Shown here piece by piece: positions 2,996 to 64,000 of a DNA stretch of 64,000 nucleotides. Under the pieces are notes generated by a model that saw nothing but the letters and a program-made list of their open reading frames with translations, was not told the origin of the DNA and did no database searches. The stretch lies in contig JAHBXR010000010.1 in NCBI GenBank assembly GCA_019636335.1, positions 62,001-126,000 of the forward strand, written 5' to 3'. Origin of the DNA: Pirellulales bacterium (GTDB taxonomy: Bacteria; Planctomycetota; Planctomycetia; Pirellulales; JAEUIK01). Within the stretch, counting starts at the first letter, position 1. Each line of letters opens with the position of its first letter. The position numbers were made by a program, and so were the translations under genes.

Positions 2996-4864
2996 CTACG
3001 GTACGAGGCGCAAGACGATGCGCCGCAAGTCCATCACCGCCACGCCAGGCTTCGACCGCGGCCGTACGGCCAGCGTCTGCTTGCCGGCAGCCAGCTCCAC
3101 CGTGCCGATCTCGCGCTGGATCATGTGTTGAAAATGGCCCGTTTCCTGCACGGTGAAGGGGAGCGTCTTGCCCCCTACTTCGACGTTCACCACCGCTCCA
3201 CCGCTGCCGGCGCCGCAACCTTGCTGCACCTCGACTTCATAGACGCCTGCCGCGGGAACATCGAATTCCCAGTCGGCCCAATCGTCGACATTCGTCCAAT
3301 AGCCCAACACGTTCTTGTTCGGCTGCGGTTCGTAGCGCATCGTCTTGGCATGCACGCGAGCATCGGCGGCCCGCAGCCGGATATCTCCCTGCGATGGCGT
3401 GACACTGGCCTTGCGACCTTTGACGGCGGCGTTCATGGCGGCGCGCCATTCCTTCCACGCCGGTTCGGTTTCGGCGGCCGTTGCCTCGGCAACCAGCTTC
3501 GAGGGATCTTGCTCGATATAGAGCCGTCGATGCAGGGCCGCATCGAAGTCCGGATTGGGCATCGGCATCTGCGCGCCGACACTGGCCCGCCAAGCACGCA
3601 GCTTGCCCAGCAACGCTTCGGCACGCGCGGGCTCCGCCGAGGCGAGATTCTTCGCCTCTCCCACGTCCCCCGCCAGATCGTACAACTCGACGCTGCCATC
3701 CTCGAACTGCTCGACGAGCTTCCAATCGCCCTGGCGAATCGCGCCCGCGGGCCGGCCCCCTTGATTCGTGTAGTTTGGAAAATGCCAGTACAGCGTGCGT
3801 TCAGGCATCGTCTCGCCCCGCAGCAGGGGCAGGATGCTCACCCCATCGAGTGGTCCGACTTCCGCCGCCACGTCCCCTCCCGCCGCTTCGAGCAGCGTCG
3901 GCACGAGGTCGCTCAACACGACGGGGGTCTCGCAGACGCTCTCCGGTTTGACGACCCCCGGCCAGCGCACCAGCAAGGGCTCGCGCAGCCCTCCTTCGTA
4001 CAAGTATCCCTTGCCCGCCCGATACGGACGGCTGTACGTGGCCGGCGTGCCGGGAAACTCGAGCACGTGGAGCCCACCGTTGTCGCTCGTGAAAATGAAG
4101 ATGGTCTGCTCGGTCAGGCCGAGCTCGTCGACCTTCTTCATGAGTCGCCCAACGGTGGCGTCGAGCGTTTCGACCATCGCCGCGTAGACGGGATGGAACG
4201 CATCCCGATTCTTTTCGATCAGTTCCGGCGCCGCCGCCAGCGGAATGTGCGGACAATGATGCGGCACGTAGCAGAAGAAGGGCTCGTCGCGGTGGTCCGC
4301 GATGAACTGTTCGGCCGCCGCGGTGATGGCGTATTCCGATTTGCCCCCCGTGGCGAGCGTCGCCTCCGAGGCGGCCTTTGGTTCAACCGCCACGTCGAAA
4401 CCCTGCTCGAGCGGCCCGAAGCCGGGCCCGCCAAGGTGCCACTTGCCGAAGAGCCCCGTCGCATACCCACGCCGCTGGAGCAATTCGGCCAGGGTTACTT
4501 CCTCGAGGGGCAACTGTCCCTCGATGCGCGGCTGCAGCAGCCGTTGCGAGAGGGCATCGGCCCGCCCCGGCAGAAAATTCGTCAAATGCAGCCGCGCCGG
4601 GCACTTGCCGCTCATCAGCGCCGCGCGTGACGGCGAGCAAATCGACTGCGCCGTGTAGGCGCACGTGAAGCGCATTCCCTCGTTCGCCAACTGGTCGAGA
4701 TGGGGAGTGCGATGGTCGTTACGCCCGTAACAGCCCAGATCGGTACCGCCGAGATCGTCGGCAAGCACCAGGACAATGTTGGGATGGGAAACCGGGGCGG
4801 CCGCCATCGGTGCCACCGCCCCTCCCGTCGCGACGAGCAGCACAATCGCCTGAATCACTTTCAT
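2996..4864 (-). CDS. Secreted arylsulfatase with C-terminal beta-sandwich domain
   Basis: A 622-residue sulfatase of the alkaline-phosphatase superfamily. It hydrolyses sulfate esters, probably on sulfated polysaccharides. The ATG at 4862-4864 puts a hydrophobic signal peptide first (residues 1-23); a longer frame upstream adds a basic stretch unlike a signal. The metal-binding Asp pair (LADDLGG, ~35) and the formylglycine motif C76-S-P-S-R are intact. Cys76 therefore needs a formylglycine-generating enzyme encoded elsewhere. The catalytic domain runs to ~450. After a charged linker, residues ~490-622 form a predicted beta-sandwich (WADWEFDVPAAGVYEVEV region) resembling CBM6/CBM35 carbohydrate-binding modules. 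The gene leads an operon with the sulfate exporter. Planctomycetes typically carry many such sulfatases for algal glycans. The exact substrate cannot be read from the sequence. Confidence 0.93.
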   Translation of the reverse strand: MKVIQAIVLLVATGGAVAPMAAAPVSHPNIVLVLADDLGGTDLGCYGRNDHRTPHLDQLANEGMRFTCAYTAQSICSPSRAALMSGKCPARLHLTNFLPGRADALSQRLLQPRIEGQLPLEEVTLAELLQRRGYATGLFGKWHLGGPGFGPLEQGFDVAVEPKAASEATLATGGKSEYAITAAAEQFIADHRDEPFFCYVPHHCPHIPLAAAPELIEKNRDAFHPVYAAMVETLDATVGRLMKKVDELGLTEQTIFIFTSDNGGLHVLEFPGTPATYSRPYRAGKGYLYEGGLREPLLVRWPGVVKPESVCETPVVLSDLVPTLLEAAGGDVAAEVGPLDGVSILPLLRGETMPERTLYWHFPNYTNQGGRPAGAIRQGDWKLVEQFEDGSVELYDLAGDVGEAKNLASAEPARAEALLGKLRAWRASVGAQMPMPNPDFDAALHRRLYIEQDPSKLVAEATAAETEPAWKEWRAAMNAAVKGRKASVTPSQGDIRLRAADARVHAKTMRYEPQPNKNVLGYWTNVDDWADWEFDVPAAGVYEVEVQQGCGAGSGGAVVNVEVGGKTLPFTVQETGHFQHMIQREIGTVELAAGKQTLAVRPRSKPGVAVMDLRRIVLRLVP

Positions 4865-49461: not shown

Positions 49462-49802
49462 GGCAAGTCGCGGGGCAGGGGGGGATGCGCTCGATGCAAT
49501 CGCTAGAACTTTCGCGATCGGACAGCACGGCAACGTAGAACGCGCACGATCTCTACAACTTAGCACACAGGTCCCCCGCAGCCCGATGGGGGGCGTTGCA
49601 ACCGCTACTTCGGCCGGCCGAAAGCGTGTCGAACGGCCCCGCAAGCTGTCGCGGCGCACCTCGTGGGACCGATACGAAACATCGGTGGACCGCGCGCTAC
49701 CGCCAGGATCGGCCAGGCGCGCGGTGGGCGGAGCACCAGCCATCACAACGTTCGACGGGCCTCGACCACGGCCCGCCGGCGCGCGTCACGGAGGCGATCT
49801 CG
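49462..49802. other. Divergent promoter region, no gene
   Basis: This 341-bp gap separates the divergent ABC ATPase and SppA-like genes. It should hold both promoters, though I could not pick out convincing -35/-10 pairs. A strong GGAGG ribosome-binding site 8 bp before ATG 49803 ends it. Long frames that run through from both sides have no protein-like features. Confidence 0.45.
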
Positions 49803-50861
49803 ATGCCGGGCCGCCAGGCAAACTGGCCGCTGCCGCTCGCGCGAGCATTCTGGCTCGTGGCGCTGGCCTTGTCGTTGGCCGGTTGCCGCCATCCCATCGC
49901 GGTCAAGACCGACAGCCGCGTGACGGTCGTCTCGCCCCAGCCGCACAGCATGGGACCGCTCGTCGCCATGCCCGTCGTCCACGGTCAGGTCGAGACCCCG
50001 CGCCGCATTGCGCTGGTCGACGTCGACGGATTGATCCTCAATCAGCCCATGACGGGACTCTACAGCGAAGGCGAGAATCCCGTCGCGCTCTTCCGCGAAA
50101 AGCTCGATCAGATCGCTCGCGACCCCTGCTATGCCGCCGTGGTGATTCGCATCAACAGTCCCGGCGGCGGCGTGACCGCCTCCGACGTCATCTGGCACGA
50201 TCTGCGCGAGCTGAAAGCCCGGCGCGGCATCCCCGTCGTGGCCTGCCTGATGGATGTCGGGGCTGGCGGGGCATACTACCTCGCCACGGCCGCCGATCAC
50301 ATCGTGGCCCACCCGACTTCGGTCACGGGGGGCATCGGCGTCATCCTGAATCTCTACAACCTCGAAGACGCCATGGCGCAATTCAACGCCGTGGGCACGC
50401 CCATCAAATCGGGCGAGTACATCGATCTCGGCACTCCCATCCGGGCTCAGAGCGACGAGGCCCGCGAGTTGCTGCAGACGATGGCCAACGAGTTTCACGG
50501 ACGCTTCAAGCAGGTCGTGCTCGAAGCGCGGCCCCAGGTGGCGCACGATCCGACCGACATCTTCGACGGACGCGTCTTCACGGCGCAGCAGGCACTTGGC
50601 CGACACCTGGTCGACTCGATCGGCTACGTCGACGATGCGATCGCCATCGCCGCGCAGATGGGGGGCGCACCCGGCGCACCGGTCGTGGCCCTGCATCGCT
50701 GCCACGATCGCGCGCGCACGCCCTACGACGTCACGCCGAACGTCCCCTTGCAGGCCAACTTCCTCCCGCTGAGCATTCCGGGACTAGAACGCTCGAAACT
50801 GCCCACGTTTCTTTATCTCTGGCAGCCCGAGCCCACGCTCGAGCGCATGAGCGGGCGCTGA
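49803..50861 (+). CDS. SppA-like S49-family lipoprotein lacking the catalytic serine
   Basis: A 352-residue exported lipoprotein: GGAGG 8 bp upstream of the ATG, hydrophobic signal and the lipobox LSLAGC with Cys28. The body matches SppA (ClpP/crotonase fold). It has RIALVDVDGLILNQ, then VVIRINSPGGGVTASDVIW (~118-136) and the segment where the serine nucleophile should be. In SppA that segment reads AASGGYY; here it is GAGGAYY, so Gly155 replaces Ser. The general-base Lys is retained (PIKSG, Lys202). The enzyme is therefore either inactive, a binding protein or uses another residue. It could be a regulator or scaffold of membrane proteins. Its downstream context is the MacB-type permease and lipopeptide genes. 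Confidence 0.85.
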   Translation: MPGRQANWPLPLARAFWLVALALSLAGCRHPIAVKTDSRVTVVSPQPHSMGPLVAMPVVHGQVETPRRIALVDVDGLILNQPMTGLYSEGENPVALFREKLDQIARDPCYAAVVIRINSPGGGVTASDVIWHDLRELKARRGIPVVACLMDVGAGGAYYLATAADHIVAHPTSVTGGIGVILNLYNLEDAMAQFNAVGTPIKSGEYIDLGTPIRAQSDEARELLQTMANEFHGRFKQVVLEARPQVAHDPTDIFDGRVFTAQQALGRHLVDSIGYVDDAIAIAAQMGGAPGAPVVALHRCHDRARTPYDVTPNVPLQANFLPLSIPGLERSKLPTFLYLWQPEPTLERMSGR

Positions 50862-51541
50862 TCCGCGCTCGATTTCCGCGAAGAGCACGCTGCCCGGCAC
50901 AAGTGCAGGAACCGATCGCTTCGTCGTCAACGTGATACATCTCGTCGCGATCTTGCGACGCGGGCGGATTCGATTCCCTGCCGCAGCTCTCGCTGAGTGC
51001 GTCTCCGCCTCGCAAAATATCTTCACCATTGGTACACGATTCTGGCCACTGCGCGGCAGCGCGTGGTCGCCAGAAAAACAAGTCGATATGACGGCGCTCG
51101 GGCTGCGTCCCTAGGGAGCGGGGCTTCCCCCCTTCTTCGTGGTGCGGGAAACTACAGTCTGCCGGAAATGGTTTCCCGGCAACCAATTCGCGATACGATT
51201 CAGGCGTGAGGGTCGTATCGAGTAGGAGGCCTGCTCAGCCCCACCCTGGACCATTCGTAGCGATCAAGGATGGCTGTTTTGCCACGAGGCCCGTCAAACC
51301 GCACGCGAACCGCATCAAATCCCGCCGTCCGAGCGGTGAGGTGCCATTTTCTGGCCGAGAATTGGGATGAACTCCACTGGTCGACACGACTTAGCGTCGT
51401 TTCGCCCCCGCCTTGCTCGATCACCTGCCGCGATTACCTCGGAACGTCGCCGGCGCGGACCGCGTCCAAGCCTGTGGCTCCACAACTCCACCCTGGCATT
51501 CTACTGAGCGAGCGAGTGCCGATACTCGCCTGAGCAGCGTC
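50862..51541. other. 680-bp intergenic region before the permease
   Basis: I see no supported gene. A T-arm-like string near 50960-50990 is not part of a foldable tRNA. Minus-strand frames here (50731-51186 and 51200-51424) have no recognisable protein features. The region is unusually long for this gene-dense window and lies directly upstream of the exporter/lipopeptide operon, so it is the best place to look for its promoter and regulatory sites. I could not identify a convincing -35/-10 pair by eye. Confidence 0.4.
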
Positions 51542-52675
51542 ATGCGTTTAACCACCTTCGTTTACCGCAACCTCACGCGACGTCGCGTCCGCTCGGCGCT
51601 GACGGTCTGCGGCATGGCCGTGGCGGTGTCGGCGGTGGTGGCTCTGGTGGGCATCGCCGACGGATTTCGGCAATCGTTTCTCGACTTGTACGCTGGGAAC
51701 GGAATCGATGTGATCGTCGTGCGGGCTCGCTCGGCCGATCGCATGGCCAGCGAGTTGGATGAAACGCTAGGGCCCCGAATTGCCGGCCTCGAAGGTGTCG
51801 CCTCGGTCGAGCCGGTGTTGATGGATGCCATCTCGCTGGAAGATTCCGGCCAGATCGGCGTCGTACTGCAAGGACTCGATCCTGCCGCGCCAACCGTGCG
51901 CGACCTGCAGATTACCGCGGGGCGCACCCTGCGGAGCGGCGAGCAAAAGAGCGTTCTGCTCGGCCGAATACTCGCCCAGAACCTGGGCAAGCAGATCGGC
52001 GACAAGCTCGAGATCTACGAAGGCGAGGACTTCGAGGTCATCGGTACCTACGATCGGCAAAACCTGTTCGAAAACGGTTCGATGATCGTGCCCCTCGCCG
52101 AGCTCCAACGGATGCTCGGGCAGGAGGGGCTCGTCACCGCCTTCAATGTCACCGTGGCAGAACCACGCTCGGCCGAGACGATCGCTCACGTCGTGGCGAC
52201 CATCGACGGCATGCGCGCGGGGCTCTCGGCCATGGCCACCGAGGAATACGTCGCCACCGATAACCGCATCCGCGGCGCCAGCGCCATGGCGTGGAGCACC
52301 TCGGCCATTGCGTTGGTGATCGGCGCCATCGGCATGCTCAACACGATGATCGTGGCGGTCTTCGAACGCACGGGCGAGATCGGCATCCTGCGGGCCATCG
52401 GTTGGCGCAAGGGGCGCATCGTGCAGATGATCCTGCTCGAATCCAGTCTTTTATGCCTTGCCGGCGCGGTGGTTGGCACGGGGCTTGCGTTCTTGATGAC
52501 CTATTTGCTCAGCCGCGCGCCGGCTACGGCGGGACTCGTCAGCGCGACGATTCCCCCACACGTGGTAGCTCAGGGCTTTGTGATCGCCCTGCTGATCGGA
52601 CTTTTGGGGGCCAGCTACCCGGCCTTTCGCGCGTCGCGACTCACCCCCACCACGGCGTTGCGACACGAAGGCTAA
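51542..52675 (+). CDS. MacB/FtsX-type ABC transporter permease
   Basis: A 377-residue permease. One N-terminal membrane helix (SALTVCGMAVAVSAVVALVGIA, quoted here as VCGMAVAVSAVVALVG) is followed by a large extracytoplasmic domain (~45-240, MacB_PCD fold, with GRILAQNLGKQIGDKL). A C-terminal group of three helices follows, with the FtsX signature VFERTGEIGILRAIGWRKG (~283-301) and PAFRASRLTPTTALRHE at the end. This architecture belongs to MacB/LolC-type complexes that use mechanotransmission to export or extract substrates. There is no fused ATPase, so it needs a LolD/MacB-like ATPase such as the one at 48751-49461. It is 50 bp before the fatty-acyl-AMP ligase gene and likely cotranscribed. 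A role in lipopeptide export is inference. Confidence 0.9.
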   Translation: MRLTTFVYRNLTRRRVRSALTVCGMAVAVSAVVALVGIADGFRQSFLDLYAGNGIDVIVVRARSADRMASELDETLGPRIAGLEGVASVEPVLMDAISLEDSGQIGVVLQGLDPAAPTVRDLQITAGRTLRSGEQKSVLLGRILAQNLGKQIGDKLEIYEGEDFEVIGTYDRQNLFENGSMIVPLAELQRMLGQEGLVTAFNVTVAEPRSAETIAHVVATIDGMRAGLSAMATEEYVATDNRIRGASAMAWSTSAIALVIGAIGMLNTMIVAVFERTGEIGILRAIGWRKGRIVQMILLESSLLCLAGAVVGTGLAFLMTYLLSRAPATAGLVSATIPPHVVAQGFVIALLIGLLGASYPAFRASRLTPTTALRHEG

Positions 52676-52725: not shown

Positions 52726-54954
52726 ATGAAGGCAACGTTTCCCTCCCAGGGCGCCGGCCGCGTCGGCCAACAAGCGACGAACCTCGTCGAGGTATTTCGC
52801 CAGCGCGCCGAGGAACAAGCGGACCAGATTGCATTCACGGTGCTGGGCGAGCCCCACGCGGCGCCGCAGGATTACACCTACGCCGAGTTGGATCGCCGGG
52901 CAAGAGCGGTCGCCGCGCGGTTACAGCACACCTGCACGCCCGGCGCGCGCGCTCTGTTGATGTATGAGACCGGAATCGACTACATCGCGGCACTCGCCGG
53001 CTGTCTCTACGCCGGCGTGGTGGCCGTGCCCGTCTATCCCCCCGATCCCCTCCGCGCGACGCGAACCTTTCCGCGGCTCGAGGCGATCATTCGCGACGCG
53101 GACGCCTCGGTGCTCCTCGGCACGGCCGCCGATCTGGCCTGGGCCGGCACGATGCTAGGCAAGATCCCTCGTCTCCACGAGCTCGTCGCCACCGACGCGC
53201 TCGACGCGGCGTGGGCCGATCGTTGGCAGTTGCCCGAACTCGATCGCCAGTCGCTGGCCTTCCTGCAATACACCTCGGGTTCGACGAGTCTGCCCAAGGG
53301 GGTCGTGGTCCGCCACGGCAATGTGTTGGCGAACCTGGCCCAGATGGAACGCTCGCTCGACGTGCCCAACGCGCTGGTCTGCACCTGGTTGCCCACCTAC
53401 CACGACATGGGGCTGATCGGCGGAATCTTCCAATGCTGGTATAGCGCGCGGCGCAATATCCTGCTCACGCCCGTGGCATTCTTCCAGCAGCCCTTGCGCT
53501 GGTTGCAGGCCATCTCCGACTATCGCGCGACGACGACCGCCGCGCCCGACTTCGCCTACGAATGGTGCGTGCGCAAGTTCCGCGCCGAAGAGTGTGCCGA
53601 TCTCGATCTCGGTTGCCTGCAGATCGCCATGTCGGGCGCGGAGCCGGTCCGCGCGACAACGATCGAGCAGTTCGTCGAAACCTTCGGTCCCTACGGCATG
53701 CGTCGCGAAAGCTTCCGCCCCTGCTACGGACTGGCCGAGGCCACGCTGATGGTCGCGGCCGGCAAGCTCGCAAGCGTCGCCACCGTCGAACACTTCGACG
53801 GGGCCAAGCTGGCGCAAAACCGCGCGGCTCCGGTCAACGAAGCTGCCACCAACGCCCGCACGCTCGTCGCTTGCGGCACCTCCGCCGATGGCATACGCGT
53901 GCAAATCGTCGATCCGCAGACCCTCGAATGTCTCGCGGACGAACACGTGGGAGAGATCTGGGTCCAGGGCGAAAACGTCACCGCCGGCTACTGGGAACAG
54001 TCCGAGTTGTCGGAGCACACCTTTCGCGCTCGCACGGCCGACGGCGCCGGTCCGTTTCTCCGCACGGGGGATCTCGGCTTCTTCCGCCAGGGCGAACTGT
54101 TCATCGCCGGCCGACTGAAGGATCTGATCATCGTTCACGGGCGCAATCATCATCCCAACGATCTCGAACAGACCGTCGAACGATGCCACGAGGCGCTGAA
54201 GCCGCACGGCGGCGCGGCCTTCTCTGTCGAACAAGAGGGGCGCGAGCGCGTTGTCATCGTCCACGAGGTGCAACGCCCCAAACGCTTCGACCTGGACGAG
54301 GTCGCGCAGACGGTACGCCGCGCCGTGCTCGAGGCGCACGATCTCGTCGTCGACTCGGTCGTGCTCATCCGGCAGGGCTCGCTTTCGAAAGCCACCAGCG
54401 GCAAGGTACAGCGGCACGCTTGCCGCGAGCGTTACCTGGCGGGGGGCTTGAATGTGTTGCACGCCACCGAACGCGGCCAGCCTGGCAAGGGCTCCACAAG
54501 TGTCGAATACGTCGCCCCGCGCAACGAGATCGAAGCTCAATTGGCCGCCTCTTGGGCCGACGTGTTTGGCGTCGAGCGCGTGGGCGTCCACGACAATTTC
54601 TTCGACCTGGGGGGGCACAGCCTGCTGGCGGCACAAGTGGCCAACCGGCTCGCTCCCCGCTACGGCATCGAAATCACCCTGGCCGAGTTGTTCGAACGCC
54701 CCACGATCGCCAGCCTGGCCGAGTTGATCGCCGAACGGATGAGCGCCTCGGCCGAACTGGACGACCCCGCCGAATTGGCCCTGCTGGCGGAATTGGAACG
54801 CATGTCGGACGACGAAGTCCAGGCGGCGCTAGCCGCCAGCCGGGGAGAGTGCATGCCGCAACTCCCCTCGAACGACACCGATGCGACGCACGAACGATCG
54901 TGGTGGGGCAGTGCCGAGTTCGGCTCGCTCCGCGACTCGCGGCAGTCGGGTTGA
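52726..54954 (+). CDS. Fatty-acyl-AMP ligase with C-terminal carrier domain (FAAL-ACP)
   Basis: A 742-residue starter enzyme of a lipopeptide assembly line. The ATG has AGAAGGA ~8 bp upstream. Residues ~20-585 are a fatty-acyl-AMP ligase: YTSGSTSLPKGVVVRHGN (Y182 onward), LPTYHDMGLIGGIFQ (~208-222), ENVTAGYWEQSELSEHTF and the C-terminal GRLKDLIIVHGRNHHPNDLE (~462-481). FAALs activate fatty acids as acyl-AMP and pass them straight to a carrier without CoA. Residues ~600-670 are a carrier domain with the 4'-phosphopantetheine Ser in NFFDLGGHSLLAAQ (Ser632). It starts 50 bp after the permease and 31 bp before the first NRPS. It should load the chain that the first NRPS condensation domain uses. 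Confidence 0.94.
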   Translation: MKATFPSQGAGRVGQQATNLVEVFRQRAEEQADQIAFTVLGEPHAAPQDYTYAELDRRARAVAARLQHTCTPGARALLMYETGIDYIAALAGCLYAGVVAVPVYPPDPLRATRTFPRLEAIIRDADASVLLGTAADLAWAGTMLGKIPRLHELVATDALDAAWADRWQLPELDRQSLAFLQYTSGSTSLPKGVVVRHGNVLANLAQMERSLDVPNALVCTWLPTYHDMGLIGGIFQCWYSARRNILLTPVAFFQQPLRWLQAISDYRATTTAAPDFAYEWCVRKFRAEECADLDLGCLQIAMSGAEPVRATTIEQFVETFGPYGMRRESFRPCYGLAEATLMVAAGKLASVATVEHFDGAKLAQNRAAPVNEAATNARTLVACGTSADGIRVQIVDPQTLECLADEHVGEIWVQGENVTAGYWEQSELSEHTFRARTADGAGPFLRTGDLGFFRQGELFIAGRLKDLIIVHGRNHHPNDLEQTVERCHEALKPHGGAAFSVEQEGRERVVIVHEVQRPKRFDLDEVAQTVRRAVLEAHDLVVDSVVLIRQGSLSKATSGKVQRHACRERYLAGGLNVLHATERGQPGKGSTSVEYVAPRNEIEAQLAASWADVFGVERVGVHDNFFDLGGHSLLAAQVANRLAPRYGIEITLAELFERPTIASLAELIAERMSASAELDDPAELALLAELERMSDDEVQAALAASRGECMPQLPSNDTDATHERSWWGSAEFGSLRDSRQSG

Positions 54955-54985
54955 TTCGCAGCATGTAGAAAGCAGTTCCCCGCTC

Positions 54986-57900
54986 ATGCCACAAGCCCTC
55001 GCTGCACGACTGGCTCAGCTCTCGCCCGAGAAGCAGGCGCTCTTCGAGCAACTGCGCCGTGGCCAGCGCACCGTCACTGCCGCTGGCTCAGCGGACTCGC
55101 GCGATGCAACCTCGTGTTGGGCGCCCCTCTCCTTTGCCCAAGAGCGCCTCTGGTATCTCGATCAACTGACGCCCGGGAATCCCTTCTACAACGTGGCCAC
55201 CGCGGTGCGCCTGCGCGGGCAACTCGATTTCCAGGCCTTGCAGGCCGCCTTACAAGCTACGGTCGATCGCCATGCGGGGCTCCGCACGACCTTCGCGCTC
55301 GTCGAGGGAGAGCCGCGTCAGATCGTCGGCCCGGTCGAATTGCCGCTCGCGCAGCTCGACCTGCGCGACGTGCCGGTTGACCAGCGTGAAGCGCGACTCA
55401 GATCCATCGCCCAAGAAGAAGCGCTGCGATCGTTCGATCTTGCCCGTGGACCGCTGCTGCGCGCGCAGCTCGTACGCACGCGGGACGACGAGCACACGCT
55501 GCTCCTGACGCTGCATCACATCGTCTGCGACGGATGGTCGTTGGCGGTGCTGCAAGACGACGTGGCAGAATATTATGCGGCACACGTCGCAGGACGTTCA
55601 CCCGACTTGGCGCCCCTCGCGCTCGAGTACCTGGACTACACCCGGCGGCAACGCCACGAATTGCCAGGCGCCAGGCTCGACGCTCTCTTGCGTTACTGGT
55701 CTCGCGAGTTGTCCGATCTGCCGGGCCCACTCGAGTTGCCGACCGATCACCCGCGCCCCGCCGCGCAAACCTTTCGTGGCGACGTCTGCCGGCTCATGCT
55801 CGACCGCGAGTTGAGCGGCGAGTTGCGCGTGCTAGCCGGCGCCGAACGCGCCACCCCTTACATGCTGTTGCTGGCCGCCTGGCAGCTCTTGCTGGGACGC
55901 TGGTCGCGGCGGCACGACGTGGCCGTGGGAACGCCGATCGCGCAGCGCCACCATCGCGACCTGGAACGCCTGGTCGGCTTCTTCGTCAACACGCTCGTGC
56001 TGCGCGGCCGTTTCGAGGACGACCCTTCGTTCCGCGAATTCCTCGATCGCGTGAAGCAGTCGACGCTCGGCGCGCTCACCCATCAGGAGCTTCCCTTCGC
56101 TCGGCTGGTCGAACATTTGCAACCGCCGCGCGACGCAAGCCGACCGCCCCTCGTGCAGGTGATGTTCGTCATGCAGAACATCCCGGTGCGTGCCCGGCAG
56201 ACCGCTGGGCTAACGATCGAAGAGACAAGCTACGATCACGCGCCGGTCTCCCATTTCGACCTGACATTGAACGTCGACGAGCGACACGACGGCTTTCAAC
56301 TGTCGCTCGTCTTCAATCCCGACTTGTACGAGCGAGAAACCATCGAGCGTCTGCTCGCCTCGTACGAGACGTTGCTCCGCTCGATCGTGGCCGAGCCTGC
56401 CCGGCGCGTCAGCCAATTGGCACTGGCACCGGCGGCCGACCTGCGCCGGCAGCTCGTCGAACGAAATCGCACGAGTCGTTCGTTCCCCCACGACCGCATG
56501 ATTCACGAGCTCATCGCCGAACGGGCCGCGGCCGATCCGACGGCCATCGCGCTGGTGCTCGAAGATCGGCAGGTCACCTATCACGAACTCGACGCGGCCG
56601 GCAATCGGCTGGCTCGATTGCTCGCCGCACACGGTGTGACGACGGGAACGCCCGTCGGCATCTCGCTCGATCGGTCGGTCGAGCTGATCGTGGCCATGCT
56701 CGCGGTGCTCAAGGCGGGGGGCGTCTACGTGCCGCTCGATCCCGCCTACCCACCGCAGCGGCGGGCTTACATGATCACCGACGCCGGGCTTGCGCTCGTG
56801 CTGACCCGCGCCGATCTCGCCGCAGGAATTCAGACTCTGGGCTGCCAGCTCTTGCTGCTCGACGCCGAACAGCGAACGATCGACTCGATGAGTGCCCAAC
56901 CGCTCGAACGGCGCTGCGCTCCGCGCGATCTCGCCTACATCATCTACACGTCGGGCTCCACGGGCGAGCCGAAGGGGGTCGAGGTCGAGCACCGGGGGCT
57001 CGTCAACCATGCTGTCGCTTTCGCCGCACAATGCGAGTTAGGCCCAGGCGATCGGTTGCTGCAGTATCTCTCTCCCAGCTTCGACGCCGCGGCCGAGGAG
57101 ATCTTTCCCACGCTCGCCAGCGGCGCCACGCTCGTGCTCCATCCGGCCCCGGCGGAGCTGGCCGGGCGGTCGCTGCTCGAGTGGTCGCGCGCGGCCGGCG
57201 TCAACGTGCTGCACCTGCCGGTCGCCGTGTGGAATTCGTTGTTCGACGCGGAGCACGAAGCCACGCTCTTCGATCATCTGCGGTTGGTGATTGCCGGGGG
57301 CGACAATGTCTCGCGCGATGCTCTCCGCCGCTGGCGCGAGATGACGCGCGATCGCGTGCGATTCCTCTTCGCCTATGGTGTCACCGAGGCGACGATTACC
57401 TCGACGCTGTTCGACGGCCGCGAAGAACCCGCCCCTTCGGGTTCGCCGCGCATTCCCATCGGCCGCGCCCTGGCCAACCATCGCGTCTACATCCTCGACG
57501 AGCGGCTGCAGTGCGTTCCAACGGGCGTCGCCGGCGAGATCGCGCTCGGCGGAGTCGGTGTCGCGCGCGGCTACCGGGGCCGCCCCACGCTCACCGCCGG
57601 GAAGTTCGTGGCAGATTCCTTCGGCCTCGAGCCCGACGACCGCATCTATCGCACGGGCGACCTGGGACGAGTGCTCGCCGACGGCAGCATCGAGTTCCTC
57701 GGACGCATCGATCAGCAGGTGAAGATTCGCGGCTATCGCATCGAGCCGGGCGAGATTGAAGCGGCCTTGTTGCGCCACCAAGACGTTCACGAAGCGATCG
57801 TCGTTCCGCTGGGGGACGGCGAATCGCGCCGCCTGGCGGCCTATGTCGGCAGCCCGGGCGATCGCCCCCCCACCGAAGCGGATCTGCGTGAGTTCCTCGC

Positions 57901-59731
57901 CGATATGCTTCCCAGCCACATGCTGCCGACGGCAATCACCGTGCTGGCCCACTTGCCGCGGCTGCCGGGGGCGAAGGTCGACGTGGCCTCACTCCCCGAT
58001 CCGAATTGGAACCGCGCCACGCGATCCGATGCAGGCGTCGCCCCGCGCGATGAGCTCGAGGCCCAGTTGGCCGCCATCTGGCGCGACGTGCTCGGCATCG
58101 AGCGCGTCGGCGTGCATGACAACTTCTTCGAGCTTGGCGGAGACTCGATTCGCACGATCCAGGTTGTGGCCCGGGCCGGCGCGCAGGGTCTGCGCCTCAC
58201 GCCGAAGCAATGCCTCGAGCGCCAGACGATTGCCGAGCTCGCGCCGGTAGTGGGGCTCGCGCCGGCGGTGCTTGCCGAACAAGGTCCCGTGGTGGGCCCG
58301 GTTCCGCTACTGCCCATCCAGCACGAGTTCTTCTCGCTCGAGCTGGCCGACGCGCAGCACTTCAACCAGTCGGTCTTACTCGAGGTCGATCCCGCGCTTT
58401 CCAGCGAAGTGCTCGCCACGGCCCTACGCCTGCTGGGTGAACATCACGATGCCCTGCGAATGCGTTACGAACGGCAGCCGGACGGCTCCTGGCGGCAAAG
58501 GGGCCTACCGACAGAAGCGGCTCCCATGCTCGAACGTGTCGAGTCGACCGCTATCGATGTCACGGAAATCGTCGCCGCCGTCGATGCCGCGGCCGCCGCG
58601 ATTCAGGCCGGACTCGATCTCGCGCGAGGACCGATCGCACGATTCGTTTACTTCGACCGTGGAGCATCGCAGTCGGCCCGGCTGCTGATCGTGGTGCATC
58701 ACCTGGCGATCGACGCCGTAAGCTGGCGCATCGTGCTCGAAGATCTCAACCTGTTGTGCGGCCAACTTCAGCGTGGCCAAGCACCTGTCCTGCCCCCCAA
58801 GACGACTTCCTATCGCGATTGGAGCGATCGGCTTCGCGAGTACGCAGCCAGCCACGAGATCGCCGAGGAAGCCGCCTCTTGGCTCTCCACCGCGGCTGAA
58901 AACCGCCGGCTGCCATGCGAATCGAGCGAGCGTACGAACACGGTCGAATCGAGTGCCACGGTTCGCGTCGCGCTAGACGCGGACATGACGCAGGCGCTCC
59001 TCACCGATGCCCAGTTGGCCTATCGCACACGACCGCAAGATCTGCTCTTGGCGGCGCTCGCCCACGTGCTGACCGACTTCACCGGTGACCACGCCGTGCG
59101 GCTCCATCTCGAAGGACACGGGCGAGAAACCGCGGCCGAGGATCTCGATCTTTCGCGCACGGTCGGCTGGTTCACGGCGCTCTATCCCGTCGTGCTTCGC
59201 CTTCCCGCGACTAACTCGCCCGGCGACCTCATTCGCGAGACGAAGGAGCAACTGCGGCAGATTCGCAACGGCGGCCTCGGCTATGGGCTGTGGCGCTGGT
59301 TGTCGCACGACGACACCGTGCGTGCAACACTCGCCGCGGCCCAACGACCGGAGATCTGCTTCAACTATCTGGGACAGTTCGATCATCTCGTGGCGGACGA
59401 AGCGCTTTTGCGACCCGTCGACGAGCCCCACGGCGCCGACCACGGCCCTCGCAACGAGCGTGCCCATCTGTGGGAAATCAACGCTTACGTCCACCAAGGC
59501 GCGCTCCAGATCGCCTGGACGTACGGCACCGGTCACCATCGCCGCGAAACCATCGAGCGACTCGCGGCGGCCTATCTCGACCAACTCCGCGAGCTGATCG
59601 AGCATTGTCTTGCGCCAGGGGCCGGCGGCGTGACGCCTTCGGATTTTCCCCTGGCCGATCTCGATCAGGACGATCTCGACACCATCGCGGCCCTGCTCGA
59701 ACGGGACGAACCCGAGAGCGACCGATCATGA
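54986..59731 (+). CDS. Non-ribosomal peptide synthetase, C-A-T-E module
   Basis: A 1581-residue single-module NRPS. The ATG 54986 (MPQALAARLAQLSPEK) is chosen since the longer frame reads into the FAAL gene. C domain ~47-480: HHIVCDGWS (H177-H178). A domain ~500-1000: YTSGSTGEPKG (Y654 on), core motifs intact although the usual YGPTE is YGVTE, and GRIDQQVKIRGYRIEPGE. T domain: Ser1054 in NFFELGGDSIRTIQ. E domain ~1100-1540: HHLAIDAVSW (H1238-H1239), LHLEGHGRETAAEDL and EICFNYLGQFD. The E domain should convert the loaded amino acid to D. The approximate specificity code is D-A-E-H-V-A-A-I-T, which I cannot assign to a substrate. The stop overlaps the next gene's ATG by 4 nt. Confidence 0.94.
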   Translation: MPQALAARLAQLSPEKQALFEQLRRGQRTVTAAGSADSRDATSCWAPLSFAQERLWYLDQLTPGNPFYNVATAVRLRGQLDFQALQAALQATVDRHAGLRTTFALVEGEPRQIVGPVELPLAQLDLRDVPVDQREARLRSIAQEEALRSFDLARGPLLRAQLVRTRDDEHTLLLTLHHIVCDGWSLAVLQDDVAEYYAAHVAGRSPDLAPLALEYLDYTRRQRHELPGARLDALLRYWSRELSDLPGPLELPTDHPRPAAQTFRGDVCRLMLDRELSGELRVLAGAERATPYMLLLAAWQLLLGRWSRRHDVAVGTPIAQRHHRDLERLVGFFVNTLVLRGRFEDDPSFREFLDRVKQSTLGALTHQELPFARLVEHLQPPRDASRPPLVQVMFVMQNIPVRARQTAGLTIEETSYDHAPVSHFDLTLNVDERHDGFQLSLVFNPDLYERETIERLLASYETLLRSIVAEPARRVSQLALAPAADLRRQLVERNRTSRSFPHDRMIHELIAERAAADPTAIALVLEDRQVTYHELDAAGNRLARLLAAHGVTTGTPVGISLDRSVELIVAMLAVLKAGGVYVPLDPAYPPQRRAYMITDAGLALVLTRADLAAGIQTLGCQLLLLDAEQRTIDSMSAQPLERRCAPRDLAYIIYTSGSTGEPKGVEVEHRGLVNHAVAFAAQCELGPGDRLLQYLSPSFDAAAEEIFPTLASGATLVLHPAPAELAGRSLLEWSRAAGVNVLHLPVAVWNSLFDAEHEATLFDHLRLVIAGGDNVSRDALRRWREMTRDRVRFLFAYGVTEATITSTLFDGREEPAPSGSPRIPIGRALANHRVYILDERLQCVPTGVAGEIALGGVGVARGYRGRPTLTAGKFVADSFGLEPDDRIYRTGDLGRVLADGSIEFLGRIDQQVKIRGYRIEPGEIEAALLRHQDVHEAIVVPLGDGESRRLAAYVGSPGDRPPTEADLREFLADMLPSHMLPTAITVLAHLPRLPGAKVDVASLPDPNWNRATRSDAGVAPRDELEAQLAAIWRDVLGIERVGVHDNFFELGGDSIRTIQVVARAGAQGLRLTPKQCLERQTIAELAPVVGLAPAVLAEQGPVVGPVPLLPIQHEFFSLELADAQHFNQSVLLEVDPALSSEVLATALRLLGEHHDALRMRYERQPDGSWRQRGLPTEAAPMLERVESTAIDVTEIVAAVDAAAAAIQAGLDLARGPIARFVYFDRGASQSARLLIVVHHLAIDAVSWRIVLEDLNLLCGQLQRGQAPVLPPKTTSYRDWSDRLREYAASHEIAEEAASWLSTAAENRRLPCESSERTNTVESSATVRVALDADMTQALLTDAQLAYRTRPQDLLLAALAHVLTDFTGDHAVRLHLEGHGRETAAEDLDLSRTVGWFTALYPVVLRLPATNSPGDLIRETKEQLRQIRNGGLGYGLWRWLSHDDTVRATLAAAQRPEICFNYLGQFDHLVADEALLRPVDEPHGADHGPRNERAHLWEINAYVHQGALQIAWTYGTGHHRRETIERLAAAYLDQLRELIEHCLAPGAGGVTPSDFPLADLDQDDLDTIAALLERDEPESDRS

Positions 59732-62676
59732 AGAACGTCGACGACCTGCTCCCGCTGGCTCCCTTGCAAGCGCTGCAATTCGCGCATGCGCTGGCCGAGC
59801 CCGACTCGCCGCTGCTGGTCGAGCAGCTCCGCGCGACGCTCGAAGGTCCGCTCGACGTGGCGCTGTTTCGGCGCGCCTGGGAAACCATCGCCGCCAGGCA
59901 CGCGATGCTACGCGCCGCACCGGCCTGGGAAGGGCTGAAGAAGCCCGTGCTCGTCGTGCATAAACAGATCGAGCTTCCTTTCAGCGAGCTCGATTGGCGA
60001 GCACCCGACGTAACAGAGCAGCACACGCGTCTCGCCGCATGGGCCGCCGAAGATCGCCGCCAGGGATTCGACCTGCGCCGCGCGCCACTCTGGCGCATCC
60101 AGTTGATACGGCTGGGGGACGAGCGTTGGCAGTTGCTCTGGACGTGCCATCACTTGCTCCTCGACGGCTGGTCGGTGGGTATCGTGTTGCGCGAGGTCTT
60201 CACATGGTACGCCGCACAGCGTCAGGAGCAGAGCATGCCACTCCCCCCGGCGGCCCCGTTCCGCGACTTTCATACCTGGCTCAAGCGGCAAGACCACCCC
60301 GCGAGCGAGCAGTTCTGGCGCGAACAGCTTGCCGGCTGTACGCCGCTGGGTGGATTGCCCCTCGAGCGAGCCCCCTTTGAACCGCGGCCCGATCGCACGG
60401 GACATGGCGAGATCGAACGCCATCTCTCGCCGGAAGACACGGCTCGTCTGCGCGAACGAGCCAAAACCTTGCGCGTCGGCGAAAGTGCCTGGCTGCAAAC
60501 CGCCTGGGCCATCCTGCTCGGCCGCCACTTCGAGCGTGAGGAACTGCTCTTCGGCGTGGCCGTAGCGGGCAGGCCGCATTCGCTGCCACTGGTCGACGCG
60601 ATCGTCGGACCCTTCGTCAACAACGTCCCCCTGCGTGTGACGGCGCGGCTCGACGACGCCTGGAGCGACGTCTGCCGGACCGTTCAAGCCGCGGGCAGAA
60701 CCGCCCAGGCGCACGAGCACGTTCCGCTCGACGCGATTGCCCGCGCCGCGGGCATGCCCCCCGAACGGCGCTTGTTCGAGACGCTCGTCGTGCTCGAAAA
60801 CTATCCGCTCGGCGACTCGGCCAGTCGCCAGATCGGCGCTCTCCAGATCCGCGATATCCACGGCACCGCGACCTCGGCCTATTCACTCACGCTGGTGGCT
60901 CTCCCCGGCGAAGAGCTTGGCCTCCGTTTGCTGTACGACACGAAGCGGTGGAGCGAAACGACCGCCCGTGCCGTGCTGGAGCAGTTCTTGACACTCCTCG
61001 CGCAAATGAGCGAGCAGCCGGAAGCCCGCGTACGCGATCTCTCGCTGACTGCCTCCGCCCCGCGCGAACTCGCCGACGAAGAGGGGCGTCTCTCGGTGCG
61101 CGATATTGCCGGCCAACCGGCGCCGAGCTATCTGCCCGGCGAGCTGTGGTACTCTCGCGCAGGCAGCGCACCGCGCCCGACCGGTTATCGCGCGCAGCTT
61201 CTCGCCGATGGAGAAATCGAATATCTCGGGCCTGGACGTGCGTCGTTGCGCGTCGGCCGCTTCGCGATCGATCCGGACGAAATCGTGCGCGTCCTCGAGT
61301 TGCATCCACTCGTCGCGCGGGGGGCAGTGGTCGGCACGTCCTCGCGCACGCGCGCGACGCAACTGGCCGCCTATGTCGAGCCGGCGAGCGGCGCCCGGGT
61401 CGGCATCGACTCGGGCGATCACGGACTATTGCTGGGGCAATTGCGCCGTTTCGCCGAGGCACGACTACCGGCCCCCCTGTTACCCCTGGCGTGGCGCGTG
61501 GTCGACAAGCTGCCGCTCGACGCGCAGGGCGTTCTCGATACGACCGCCTTGCCCGAGCCGATGCGTGCGCGCGGCGAAACGAGCACGCCCTACGTCGCGC
61601 CGCGCGATGCGGTCGAGGCGCGCGTGGCCGAGATCTGGTCACAAGCGCTCGGCGTCGAGCCGGTCGGCGTGAACGACAGTTTCATCGACTTGGGGGGCTA
61701 TTCGAGCCTCGCGGTCACTTTGCTGGCCCGGCTCGAAGACGAGTTCGCGCGGCGCTTGCCGCTGGCGGCCTTGTTCGAGGAACCGACCGTAGCCCATCTG
61801 GCGAAATTGTTAGGACGCGAGGCAGCGACGCCCGAGGAAATCTCGCTCGTGCCGCTGCGCGCCGGCGGTGGTAAGCCTGCGTTGTTCTGCGTCCATCCCG
61901 CGGGCGGAACCGTGTTTTGCTATCTGGAGTTGGCTCAGAGGCTCTCCGACGATCGTCCCGTGTATGGCCTGCAGGCCGCCGGGATCGATGGCACGACGGC
62001 GCCGCACGAGACGATCGAGGCGATGGCGGCGCATTACCTGTCGGCGATCAAGTCCGCCCAGCCGACGGGGCCCTATCATCTCTGTGGTTGGTCGACCGGA
62101 GGAGTCGTCGCGTTCGAATTGGCGCGGCAGATGCGAGCCGCCGGCGACGAGGTGGGGTTGCTGGCACTGCTCGACGCGGCCATTCCACGGCCGGGAGAGT
62201 CCTTCGGCGCCGACGATCTGCTGCCGATGCTCGAGCTGCTTTTTCCGACCGATGATCGCCAGGTGCTCGAACGATTGCGCGAGATGCCCGCCAGCGCTCA
62301 ACTCGAGCATTTCCGCGGGCGGGCCGAGGCCGCGCAATTGCTGATCGCAGGCGCCGGCGCCTCGCAGGCAAAGCGCATCTACGAAGTATTCCAGGCCAAC
62401 ATGCAGGCGGTGGTCGCTTATCGACCAGGTCCCTACGATCGGCGCATCACGCTCTTTCGCGCCGCCGATCATGCGACTCCCATGCATGCCGACCGCACGC
62501 TCGGCTGGGAACCGTGGGCCAGCGGCGGTATCGAATTGCACGACGTCGCTGGCGAACACTTAAACCTCTTGAAATCTCCTACCGTACTGGCCATCTGCGT
62601 ACAATTGCAGCACGCCCTGGGCGAGGACACGAGATCGCCAGCACGCCACCACGAAACGGCCCACGCTGCCACCTGA
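59728..62676 (+). CDS. Terminal NRPS, C-(A remnant)-T-TE
   Basis: A 982-residue protein translated from an ATG that overlaps the upstream NRPS stop (ATGA). C domain ~1-430: LLPLAPLQALQFAHALAEP and HHLLLDGWS (H141-H142). It follows an E domain, so a DCL type is expected. Then comes only the tail of an A domain: LADGEIEYLGPGRASLRVGRF (~492-512, an A8-like stretch, lightly degraded) and a C-terminal subdomain. The A1-A7 core, including the AMP site, is missing. T domain: Ser659 in FIDLGGYSSLA. TE domain: GWSTGG (Ser789), Asp816 (LLALLDAAIP) and His944 (GEHLNLL). The triad is complete. The second amino acid must therefore be supplied in trans or by another protein. Confidence 0.93.
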   Translation: MKNVDDLLPLAPLQALQFAHALAEPDSPLLVEQLRATLEGPLDVALFRRAWETIAARHAMLRAAPAWEGLKKPVLVVHKQIELPFSELDWRAPDVTEQHTRLAAWAAEDRRQGFDLRRAPLWRIQLIRLGDERWQLLWTCHHLLLDGWSVGIVLREVFTWYAAQRQEQSMPLPPAAPFRDFHTWLKRQDHPASEQFWREQLAGCTPLGGLPLERAPFEPRPDRTGHGEIERHLSPEDTARLRERAKTLRVGESAWLQTAWAILLGRHFEREELLFGVAVAGRPHSLPLVDAIVGPFVNNVPLRVTARLDDAWSDVCRTVQAAGRTAQAHEHVPLDAIARAAGMPPERRLFETLVVLENYPLGDSASRQIGALQIRDIHGTATSAYSLTLVALPGEELGLRLLYDTKRWSETTARAVLEQFLTLLAQMSEQPEARVRDLSLTASAPRELADEEGRLSVRDIAGQPAPSYLPGELWYSRAGSAPRPTGYRAQLLADGEIEYLGPGRASLRVGRFAIDPDEIVRVLELHPLVARGAVVGTSSRTRATQLAAYVEPASGARVGIDSGDHGLLLGQLRRFAEARLPAPLLPLAWRVVDKLPLDAQGVLDTTALPEPMRARGETSTPYVAPRDAVEARVAEIWSQALGVEPVGVNDSFIDLGGYSSLAVTLLARLEDEFARRLPLAALFEEPTVAHLAKLLGREAATPEEISLVPLRAGGGKPALFCVHPAGGTVFCYLELAQRLSDDRPVYGLQAAGIDGTTAPHETIEAMAAHYLSAIKSAQPTGPYHLCGWSTGGVVAFELARQMRAAGDEVGLLALLDAAIPRPGESFGADDLLPMLELLFPTDDRQVLERLREMPASAQLEHFRGRAEAAQLLIAGAGASQAKRIYEVFQANMQAVVAYRPGPYDRRITLFRAADHATPMHADRTLGWEPWASGGIELHDVAGEHLNLLKSPTVLAICVQLQHALGEDTRSPARHHETAHAAT

Positions 62677-63217
62677 ACCTGCCGTTTCGCCCCACCACGT
62701 CTGCTCCATTGTCCGCCTTCGCTAATTGCATCGACTGAATCGATTCTGTGCTTCTGTCTGCGCCCGGCAGCCCAAGTAAGGACATCTTTCACAACCATTC
62801 AGCGAACCGTTGCAAACGGGACTGGACTACGCTTGCCAAAGAGAAGTCGTGCCGCCATCGGACAGCCGGAGTGAAAGCACCCCGCGTCCGGCTGTGCCAC
62901 GACGGGCGGAACGCCGCACCGCGGCGCAAGTGACGATGAGCAAAGGCCCCCAGTCGCGTTGCCGCGGAGGTTCGACGGCCCGAAAAACTTGCTCCGATTT
63001 CCGACTCCAAGGGTGCAAAACCCCGCCGGCCATCGGGTATTCTTATGGGTTACCACTACTAGCGGGGATGGCGTATTTCGACAAGATAGCGGGCCTAGGC
63101 AAGACCCTGCGTCACTTGGCGCCACGGTCTACCGCCGCGCCACACGCCCCGCACACGGACGATTGACGAATGCTGATACGGCCCTGCCGGCCGTTTGCTC
63201 CCGAAAAGGATTTGCCC
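62677..63217. other. Intergenic region between NRPS and the next synthase
   Basis: The 541-bp gap shows no supported gene; all frames are short or Arg-rich. It ends with an AAAGGA ribosome-binding site 8-12 bp before ATG 63218. A TATTCT hexamer near 63045 could be a -10, without a good partner. It may hold a promoter for the right-edge gene. Confidence 0.45.
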
Positions 63218-64000
63218 ATGCACGAACTCGAAGTCCTGGTGCTCACGCCGGCGGGTCTCTGCGACTCGGCGGTGGCGATCGCCGCTTGCCGCGCGGATGC
63301 CCGCGGCACGCTCGACCTCGAATACGTCATCGATCGACATCTGGCTCACCGAGAACTCGAGCGCCTGGCACAGTTCACCAGCAACGCGTTCGGCGTGAGG
63401 CTGGGAAGTCGTGCCGACGAATTGCCAGACGAGATCCTCGCCGCGCCGCACGAGCGTCTCGGTTGGGTATTGCTCTCGGCCACCGAGTCGGCCGGAACGG
63501 ACTTGTCGCGGAGAGTGTCGCGCGTGCGCGACGCCGGCCGGCAGGTGTTGCTCGAAGTGACCTCGCCCGCCGAAATCGATCGCGCGCTGGCGGCCGAGTG
63601 CGACGGTATCGTGCTCAAAGGGCACGAAGCCGCAGGACGTGTCGGCGAGGAAACGTCGTTCGTCCTCTTGCAGCGTTGGAACCAACGGGCCGCGCAAGTG
63701 TCCCCCGGGACGCGGCTGCCGCTGGTTTGGGTACAAGGAGGCATCGGGCTCAATACCGCCGCGGCCTGTCTGGTCGGCGGCGCCCAGGGCGTCGTGCTCG
63801 ATAGCCAGGTGCTGCTCGCCCGCGAAACACCACTCAGCGCGCAAATTCGCGCGCGACTCGCCCCCTTCGATGGCAGCGAGACGCAGATCGTCCGCTCGGC
63901 CGACGAGCAGATGTTCCGCGTCTGCTCGCGAGGCGACGGCGAGAAGCTGGAACAGATTGCCGCCTCGCTCGCGTCGGCCAGCGGCGTCGATCGGCAAGCC
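63218..64000 (+). CDS. Nitronate-monooxygenase-like N-terminal domain, probably of a large PKS, 3' end cut off
   Basis: An open frame of 261 codons from ATG 63218 (AAAGGA upstream) to the window end with no stop. It reads as a TIM-barrel FMN protein of the nitronate monooxygenase/PfaD type. FTSNAFGVRLG leads into ERLGWVLLSATESAG. DGIVLKGHEAAGRVGEETSF (~128-147) is the conserved glycine-rich HEAxG segment. PLVWVQGGIGLNTAAACLVGGAQGVVLDSQ is the phosphate-binding region (split here as VQGGIGLNTAAA and GGAQGVVLDSQ, ~168-190). Planctomycete and cyanobacterial giant polyketide/PUFA synthases often begin with this domain. The gene follows the lipopeptide NRPS on the same strand, so it is probably part of the same cluster. 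The PKS identity is inference because the rest is outside the window. Confidence 0.7.
   Translation, partial: MHELEVLVLTPAGLCDSAVAIAACRADARGTLDLEYVIDRHLAHRELERLAQFTSNAFGVRLGSRADELPDEILAAPHERLGWVLLSATESAGTDLSRRVSRVRDAGRQVLLEVTSPAEIDRALAAECDGIVLKGHEAAGRVGEETSFVLLQRWNQRAAQVSPGTRLPLVWVQGGIGLNTAAACLVGGAQGVVLDSQVLLARETPLSAQIRARLAPFDGSETQIVRSADEQMFRVCSRGDGEKLEQIAASLASASGVDRQA

What the first reader, a model, noticed from the sequence alone, without database searches (positions are those of the whole stretch)
61130..61600. Adenylation domain reduced to its C-terminal subdomain in the terminal NRPS
Between the C and T domains (residues ~430-620) there is no A1-A7 core, only an A8-like stretch and the C-terminal subdomain. 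Condensation still needs an aminoacyl-T acceptor, so the second residue must be charged in trans, or the chain is passed to the T domain by an unusual step. The frame is continuous, so this is a stable architecture and not a fresh frameshift.
Basis: seen in the sequence. Interest (0 to 1): 0.7.

Follow-up and report, generated by a model that had tools for sequence, protein, structure and literature searches.

The report
NRPS module with truncated adenylation domain
A planctomycete lipopeptide assembly line has a last module whose own amino-acid-activating domain has been cut down to a dead stub, so it probably borrows the neighbouring module's activating domain and adds the same amino acid twice, a trick already known from some fungal and bacterial enzymes.

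Summary
The terminal synthetase (59728-62676, 982 aa) is C-[A remnant]-T-TE. The remnant is not just A8 plus the C-terminal subdomain: it begins just before A6, keeps degenerate A6-A7, and continues through the whole C-terminal subdomain. A1-A5, the A8 core and the A10 lysine are lost. C, T and TE motifs are intact. It is no assembly error: nine other genomes carry it in the same FAAL-ACP / C-A-T-E / C-dA-T-TE line, as one clade (96/94). Two more genomes have C-T-TE with no A at all. Best explanation: this A domain charges both T domains, probably with a diamino acid (code DAEHVAAITK, close to a poly-ornithine synthetase code), giving an N-acyl dipeptide of one residue used twice. That charging step is inferred. 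The same trick is shown for fungal SidD (also with a truncated A) and bacterial AmbB/AmbE, HMWP2/HMWP1 and CmnA/CmnI. This is a bacterial, two-subunit variant of a known kind.

The parts
52726..54954 (+). FAAL-ACP: fatty acyl-AMP ligase plus acyl carrier protein (loading of the lipid)
   Evidence: Pfam AMP-binding, AMP-dom_DIP2-like, PP-binding; fatty-acyl-AMP ligase NCBIfam models
54881..59731 (+). C-A-T-E gene (start codon uncertain); holds A2, the only amino-acid adenylation domain above cut-off in the genome
   Evidence: Pfam, TIGR01733 443 bits, genome search
56498..57997 (+). A2 domain, complete A domain, pocket code DAEHVAAITK; proposed to charge both T2 and T3
   Evidence: alignment and code; DAEH conserved in 10 of 10 carriers
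59728..62676 (+). terminal NRPS C-dA-T-TE, 982 aa, ATGA overlap with upstream stop
59743..61059 (+). condensation domain C3, HHxxxDG intact (HHLLLDG)
   Evidence: motif in 12 of 12 aligned proteins
61090..61563 (+). adenylation-domain remnant (dA): A6/A7-like strands plus C-terminal subdomain; A1-A5 deleted, A8 core and A10 Lys lost
61621..61812 (+). thiolation domain T3, attachment Ser intact (LGGYS, Ser codon 61702-61704)
61879..62589 (+). thioesterase, GWSTGG / Asp / His present

Best explanation
The terminal module once had a full A domain and lost about 310-350 residues (A1-A5) in what looks like one ancestral in-frame deletion. What remains is a catalytically dead stub that keeps the end of the core and the C-terminal subdomain, probably as a folded spacer between C3 and T3. 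The intact A2 domain of the adjacent C-A-T-E protein activates one amino acid, charges its own T2 in cis and T3 of the terminal protein in trans. FAAL-ACP and C2 put an acyl chain on the first residue, E epimerises it, C3 joins it to the second copy on T3, and TE releases an N-acyl dipeptide (acyl-D-X-L-X). The pocket code suggests X is a diamino acid such as Lys or Orn. Shown by computation: the deletion, loss of catalytic motifs, intact partner domains, shared ancestry, and A2 as the only amino-acid A domain above cut-off. Inferred: trans charging, identity of X, the product, and the role of the stub.
For: Dead remnant with intact C, T and TE. Ten genomes keep it as one clade, 96/94 support, 95% of bootstrap trees, always with a C-A-T-E partner. 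Amino-acid A domains above the TIGR01733 cut-off: 1 in the home genome; 1 each in G003, G006, G040 and G057, G066; so in 6 of 10 carriers the partner A2 is the only one. Of 15 AMP-binding proteins at home only A2 has the pocket Asp. Code DAEH in 10 of 10 A2s, and in one of 18 other A domains read from relatives. Precedents read as passages: SidD, truncated A missing ~290 aa, A1 charges T1 and T2 (PMC10192304); AmbB to AmbE T2 (PMC4357302); HMWP2 to HMWP1 (PMC9547227); CmnA-A1 to CmnI (PMC12400406). Code: PosA DMEHNGTVSK activates Orn, its position-3 Glu binds the side-chain amine, Lys enzymes of that kind have Ala at position 2 (PMC10522769).
Against: No direct evidence of charging. Four of 10 carriers (G024, G048, G323, G394) have other amino-acid A domains, so a different donor is possible there. 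G003 and G066 are only 82% and 77% complete. Precedents do not prove this case. No co-variation or docking test between A2 and T3 was made. The code DAEHVAAITK itself is in no paper of the library.
Confidence: 0.75

Rival explanations
1. A stand-alone A or A-T protein elsewhere in the genome charges T3 (SyrB1/SyrE-like).
For: A split terminal module [A-T] + [C-T-TE] is known for syringomycin (PMC8949500, passage). Four of 10 carriers have further amino-acid A domains.
Against: At home only one domain passes the amino-acid cut-off and 14 of 15 AMP-binding proteins lack the pocket Asp; the ten that were scanned best match CoA-ligase, acetate-ligase or fatty-acid-ligase/olefin beta-lactone synthetase models. 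Same single A in G006 (98% complete), G040 (94%) and G057 (97%).
Confidence: 0.05
2. T3 is charged by something that is not an AMP-binding A domain, or C3 uses a free amine as acceptor.
For: Carrier proteins can be charged by aaRS-like ligases, and some C domains take free amines (both recalled, no call).
Against: One aaRS-like family tried (NF005479/PRK07080; its role as amino acid:carrier ligase is recalled) has no match at home. T3 and TE are well conserved (mean identity 0.61 and 0.56), which argues that T3 carries the chain.
Confidence: 0.1
3. The module no longer adds a residue: it takes over and releases the acyl-D-amino acid.
For: Without an acceptor, C3 could only pass or hydrolyse the chain; single-module FAAL-ACP-C-A-T-TE relatives exist.
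Against: C3 keeps HHxxxDG in 12 of 12; transfer to a bare T is not an established C-domain reaction (recalled).
Confidence: 0.08
4. Pseudogene or assembly error.
For: A truncated A domain in a Verrucomicrobia assembly was put down to a possible frameshift (PMC8692599, passage).
Against: Same deletion in 10 genomes, open frames, one clade, conserved partner domains.
Confidence: 0.01

Closest known systems
Fungal SidD / Nps6 truncated A domain (dA) module
   Same: Module whose A lacks its N-terminal part (~290 aa) and whose T is charged by the upstream A domain of the same line, shown for SidD (PMC10192304, passages)
   Different: SidD is one fungal polypeptide for a siderophore; here the dA module is a separate bacterial subunit with a TE in an FAAL-started line. 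Homology of the two truncations was not tested; charging here is not shown
Capreomycin CmnA-A1 / CmnI (bacterial trans-iterative A domain)
   Same: A-less module on its own protein uses another module's A domain; substrate is a diamino acid (PMC12400406, passages)
   Different: CmnI is described as lacking an A domain, with no remnant and no TE in the passages read; here a remnant persists
AMB synthetase AmbB / AmbE and yersiniabactin HMWP2 / HMWP1
   Same: One A domain charges its own T in cis and a T on another protein in trans (PMC4357302; PMC9547227)
   Different: The passages read describe no A remnant
PRK05691 (NF004282) FAAL-NRPS family
   Same: Same order FAAL ... C-A-T-E-C
   Different: Its last C is followed by enough model length for a full A before T (positions 3705 to 4235), and no TE match to it was seen

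Membership tests
Functional NRPS adenylation domain | AMP-binding core with A1-A5 | tested here: not met
   No PF00501 match at E<=10; remnant maps to GrsA 358-556
Functional NRPS adenylation domain | Catalytic Lys of A10 | tested here: not met
   Lys absent in 10 of 10 remnants
SidD/Nps6-type dA module | C-dA-T with the N-terminal part of A missing | tested here: met
   Remnant corresponds to the part of A2 from about residue 310-323 of 500 on, where the longest hits start
SidD/Nps6-type dA module | Upstream A charges both T domains | not testable with these tools
   Needs a loading assay; supported only by the count of A domains
SidD/Nps6-type dA module | Common descent with fungal SidD | not tested
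   SidD sequence not fetched
SyrB1/SyrE-type split module | Separate A-T protein in the genome | tested here: not met
   No second amino-acid A domain above cut-off at home
FAAL-started lipopeptide NRPS | FAAL and ACP ahead of the first C domain | tested here: met
   Home. Seen in 9 of 10 carriers; in G323 the contig starts inside the C-A-T-E gene, so it cannot be seen there

The most novel reading that the evidence does not exclude
The stub is not just a spacer. The retained C-terminal subdomain next to T3 is a docking platform that recruits the neighbour's A2 core (or whole A2) so that one A domain is shared by two separate proteins, yielding an undescribed family of planctomycete N-acyl homodipeptides of a diamino acid. 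The f4 lineage (C-T-TE, encoded apart) would be the end stage where the platform is gone.
Probability: 0.12. Interest if true: 0.6.

Novelty: new variant of a known kind. Interest (0 to 1): 0.42.

Why it matters
Standard genome-mining rules read one A domain as one residue and would call this line broken or one residue short. A clade-wide dA module whose only likely partner A is next door gives a clean, two-protein system for testing A-domain sharing in bacteria, and predicts a concrete product class (N-acyl homodipeptides). It also shows stages of A loss: full A, dA, and no A.

Tried and rejected
Stand-alone A domain: searched and not found at home; two weak TIGR01733 matches (C12:126283 and C38:29938, under 20 bits) were not aligned, and L011, L013 and L015 were not in the scan (10 of the 13 AMP-binding proteins outside the operon were given to it). 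aaRS-like carrier ligase: one family, no match. Full-length structure model: mean pLDDT 41, not used. Remnant model: pLDDT 71.5 from 4 sequences, used only for fold matching. tblastn against plasmids hit ordinary NRPS genes and told nothing on truncation. A phylum-wide draw of 392 genomes added no further carrier at E<=1e-90. Paper searches for truncated or missing A domains; for planctomycete NRPS; none of the listings showed this operon, but only seven papers were opened, and only as passages.

Dropped rows: of 38 matching genomes, 30 were classified by architecture; 8 (G163, G203, G299, G314, G332, G344, G370, G378) were not. The tree adds three rows (G014, G017, G054). 'A_MT' is my label for an A domain with an insertion of some hundreds of residues; that it is a methyltransferase was not tested, and for some short loci the label is inferred.

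Full report
What is there. The terminal synthetase starts with ATG at 59728, overlapping the stop of the gene before it (ATGA), and ends at 62676; it is 982 aa. Pfam finds C, T and TE, no AMP-binding, and AMP-binding_C only below its cut-off; in the four remnants scanned alone AMP-binding_C matches 4 of 4, at 24.2 bits against a cut-off of 24.5 for the window's own. The genes before it are FAAL-ACP (52726-54954) and C-A-T-E (to 59731).

Extent of the loss. A profile of six homologues matches GrsA PheA 358-556. A remnant-only profile of four sequences matches LgrA 511-683 and 1544-1715, beginning just before A6. A fold model of the remnant (185 residues, pLDDT 71.5) matches A domains first in Foldseek (1amu, E 4.1e-13) and in VIA-align 2 (GrsA 321-526, Z 14.9, rmsd 9.9 A, 159 aligned; I read the high rmsd as rotation between two subdomains). 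So A1-A5 are deleted; the A6-A10 positions remain but degenerate: 'TGYR' or similar for 'TGDL', no A8 motif, no A10 Lys in 10 of 10.

It is stable. In 57 genomes (home and relatives) five others align nearly full length; in 396 genomes of the order, 38 match at 1e-80. Of 30 of these 38 classified, 10 have C-dA-T-TE and 2 (G009, G027) have C-T-TE with no A. The ten form one clade in a T-TE tree of 33 proteins, 96/94, and need a single change of label; the two A-less ones form another, 100/100. A draw of 392 genomes from the phylum added none at 1e-90. The remnant has a mean pairwise identity of 0.384 among the ten, against 0.44 for C, 0.605 for T, 0.557 for TE, and 0.54-0.60 for parts of the active A2: it evolves faster than a working A domain but is alignable throughout, so it seems kept as a fold.

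The partner. All ten carriers have a C-A-T-E protein or fragment with FAAL-ACP ahead of it where the contig reaches that far; in G003 the line lies on two contigs, in G323 the contig starts inside the C-A-T-E gene, and in G394 FAAL-ACP-C-A-T-E is one protein. In G009 and G027 FAAL-ACP-C-A-T-E is one protein and C-T-TE lies on another contig among other genes. An E-domain HH..xD.xS motif was found in 10 of 12 partner proteins; not in G057 (pattern not matched) nor in G003, whose fragment ends before E.

Who charges T3. Amino-acid A domains above the TIGR01733 cut-off: home 1; G003 1, G006 1, G040 1, G048 2, G024 5, G009 2, G027 4 or 5 (five rows with C10 and C187 include one partial start); G057 1, G066 1, G323 2, G394 3. 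In 6 of 10 carriers the only one is the partner A2. At home, of 15 AMP-binding proteins, only A2 has the pocket Asp. The most economical reading is that A2 serves both T2 and T3. Against this, four carriers have other A domains, and no charging was measured.

Which amino acid. A2 codes: DAEHVAAITK at home; DAEH in 10 of 10; DVEH in G009 and G027. Among 18 other A domains from relatives, one (G015) has DAEH. PosA (ornithine) has DMEHNGTVSK; its Glu at position 3 holds the side-chain amine and Lys-activating relatives have Ala at position 2 (PMC10522769, passages). Hence a diamino acid is likely, not shown.

Precedent. SidD and Nps6 have a truncated A lacking about 290 aa, and in SidD A1 charges both T domains (PMC10192304, passages). 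Bacterial sharing of an A domain is shown for AmbB/AmbE (PMC4357302, passages), stated for HMWP2/HMWP1 (PMC9547227, passage) and shown for CmnA/CmnI (PMC12400406, passages). The present case works like these; it is a bacterial dA version on a separate TE-bearing subunit. I would call it a new variant of a known kind.

Noticed in passing
window 63170-64000, continuing in L017:167-7762: A 2532-aa NMO(PfaD-like)-KS-AT-ACP-KR polyketide synthase starts about 500 bp after the NRPS, followed by a 1218-aa AT-DH protein. No such gene follows the operon in G040 (L050, by eye).
   Followed up: partly
L073:7738-12993 (G048) and L074:9571-14757 (G024): A separate NRPS, partial C-A-T-C-T-TE, whose terminal module also has no A domain (C match ends at 1359 and 1339, T starts at 1396 and 1374); its A code DAFW.. 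differs.
   Followed up: partly
window 49596-50858 and 51485-52672: SppA-like protease and a LolCE/MacB-type permease before the operon; similar genes precede it in G040, and a similar permease in G048 (by eye).
   Followed up: partly
L051:13109-13945 (G040): A HetI/Sfp-like phosphopantetheinyl transferase beside the operon, with an ABC transporter-like gene next to it (by eye).
   Followed up: no
L063 (G015:C254): A terminal A-(insert)-T-TE protein with pocket code DAEHVVAIT, the same kind as A2, in a relative with no remnant.
   Followed up: no
G000:C15:47867 (L013, L021, L022): An 8117-aa open frame with an AMP-binding domain in the home genome, a very large megasynthase not examined here.
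   Followed up: no
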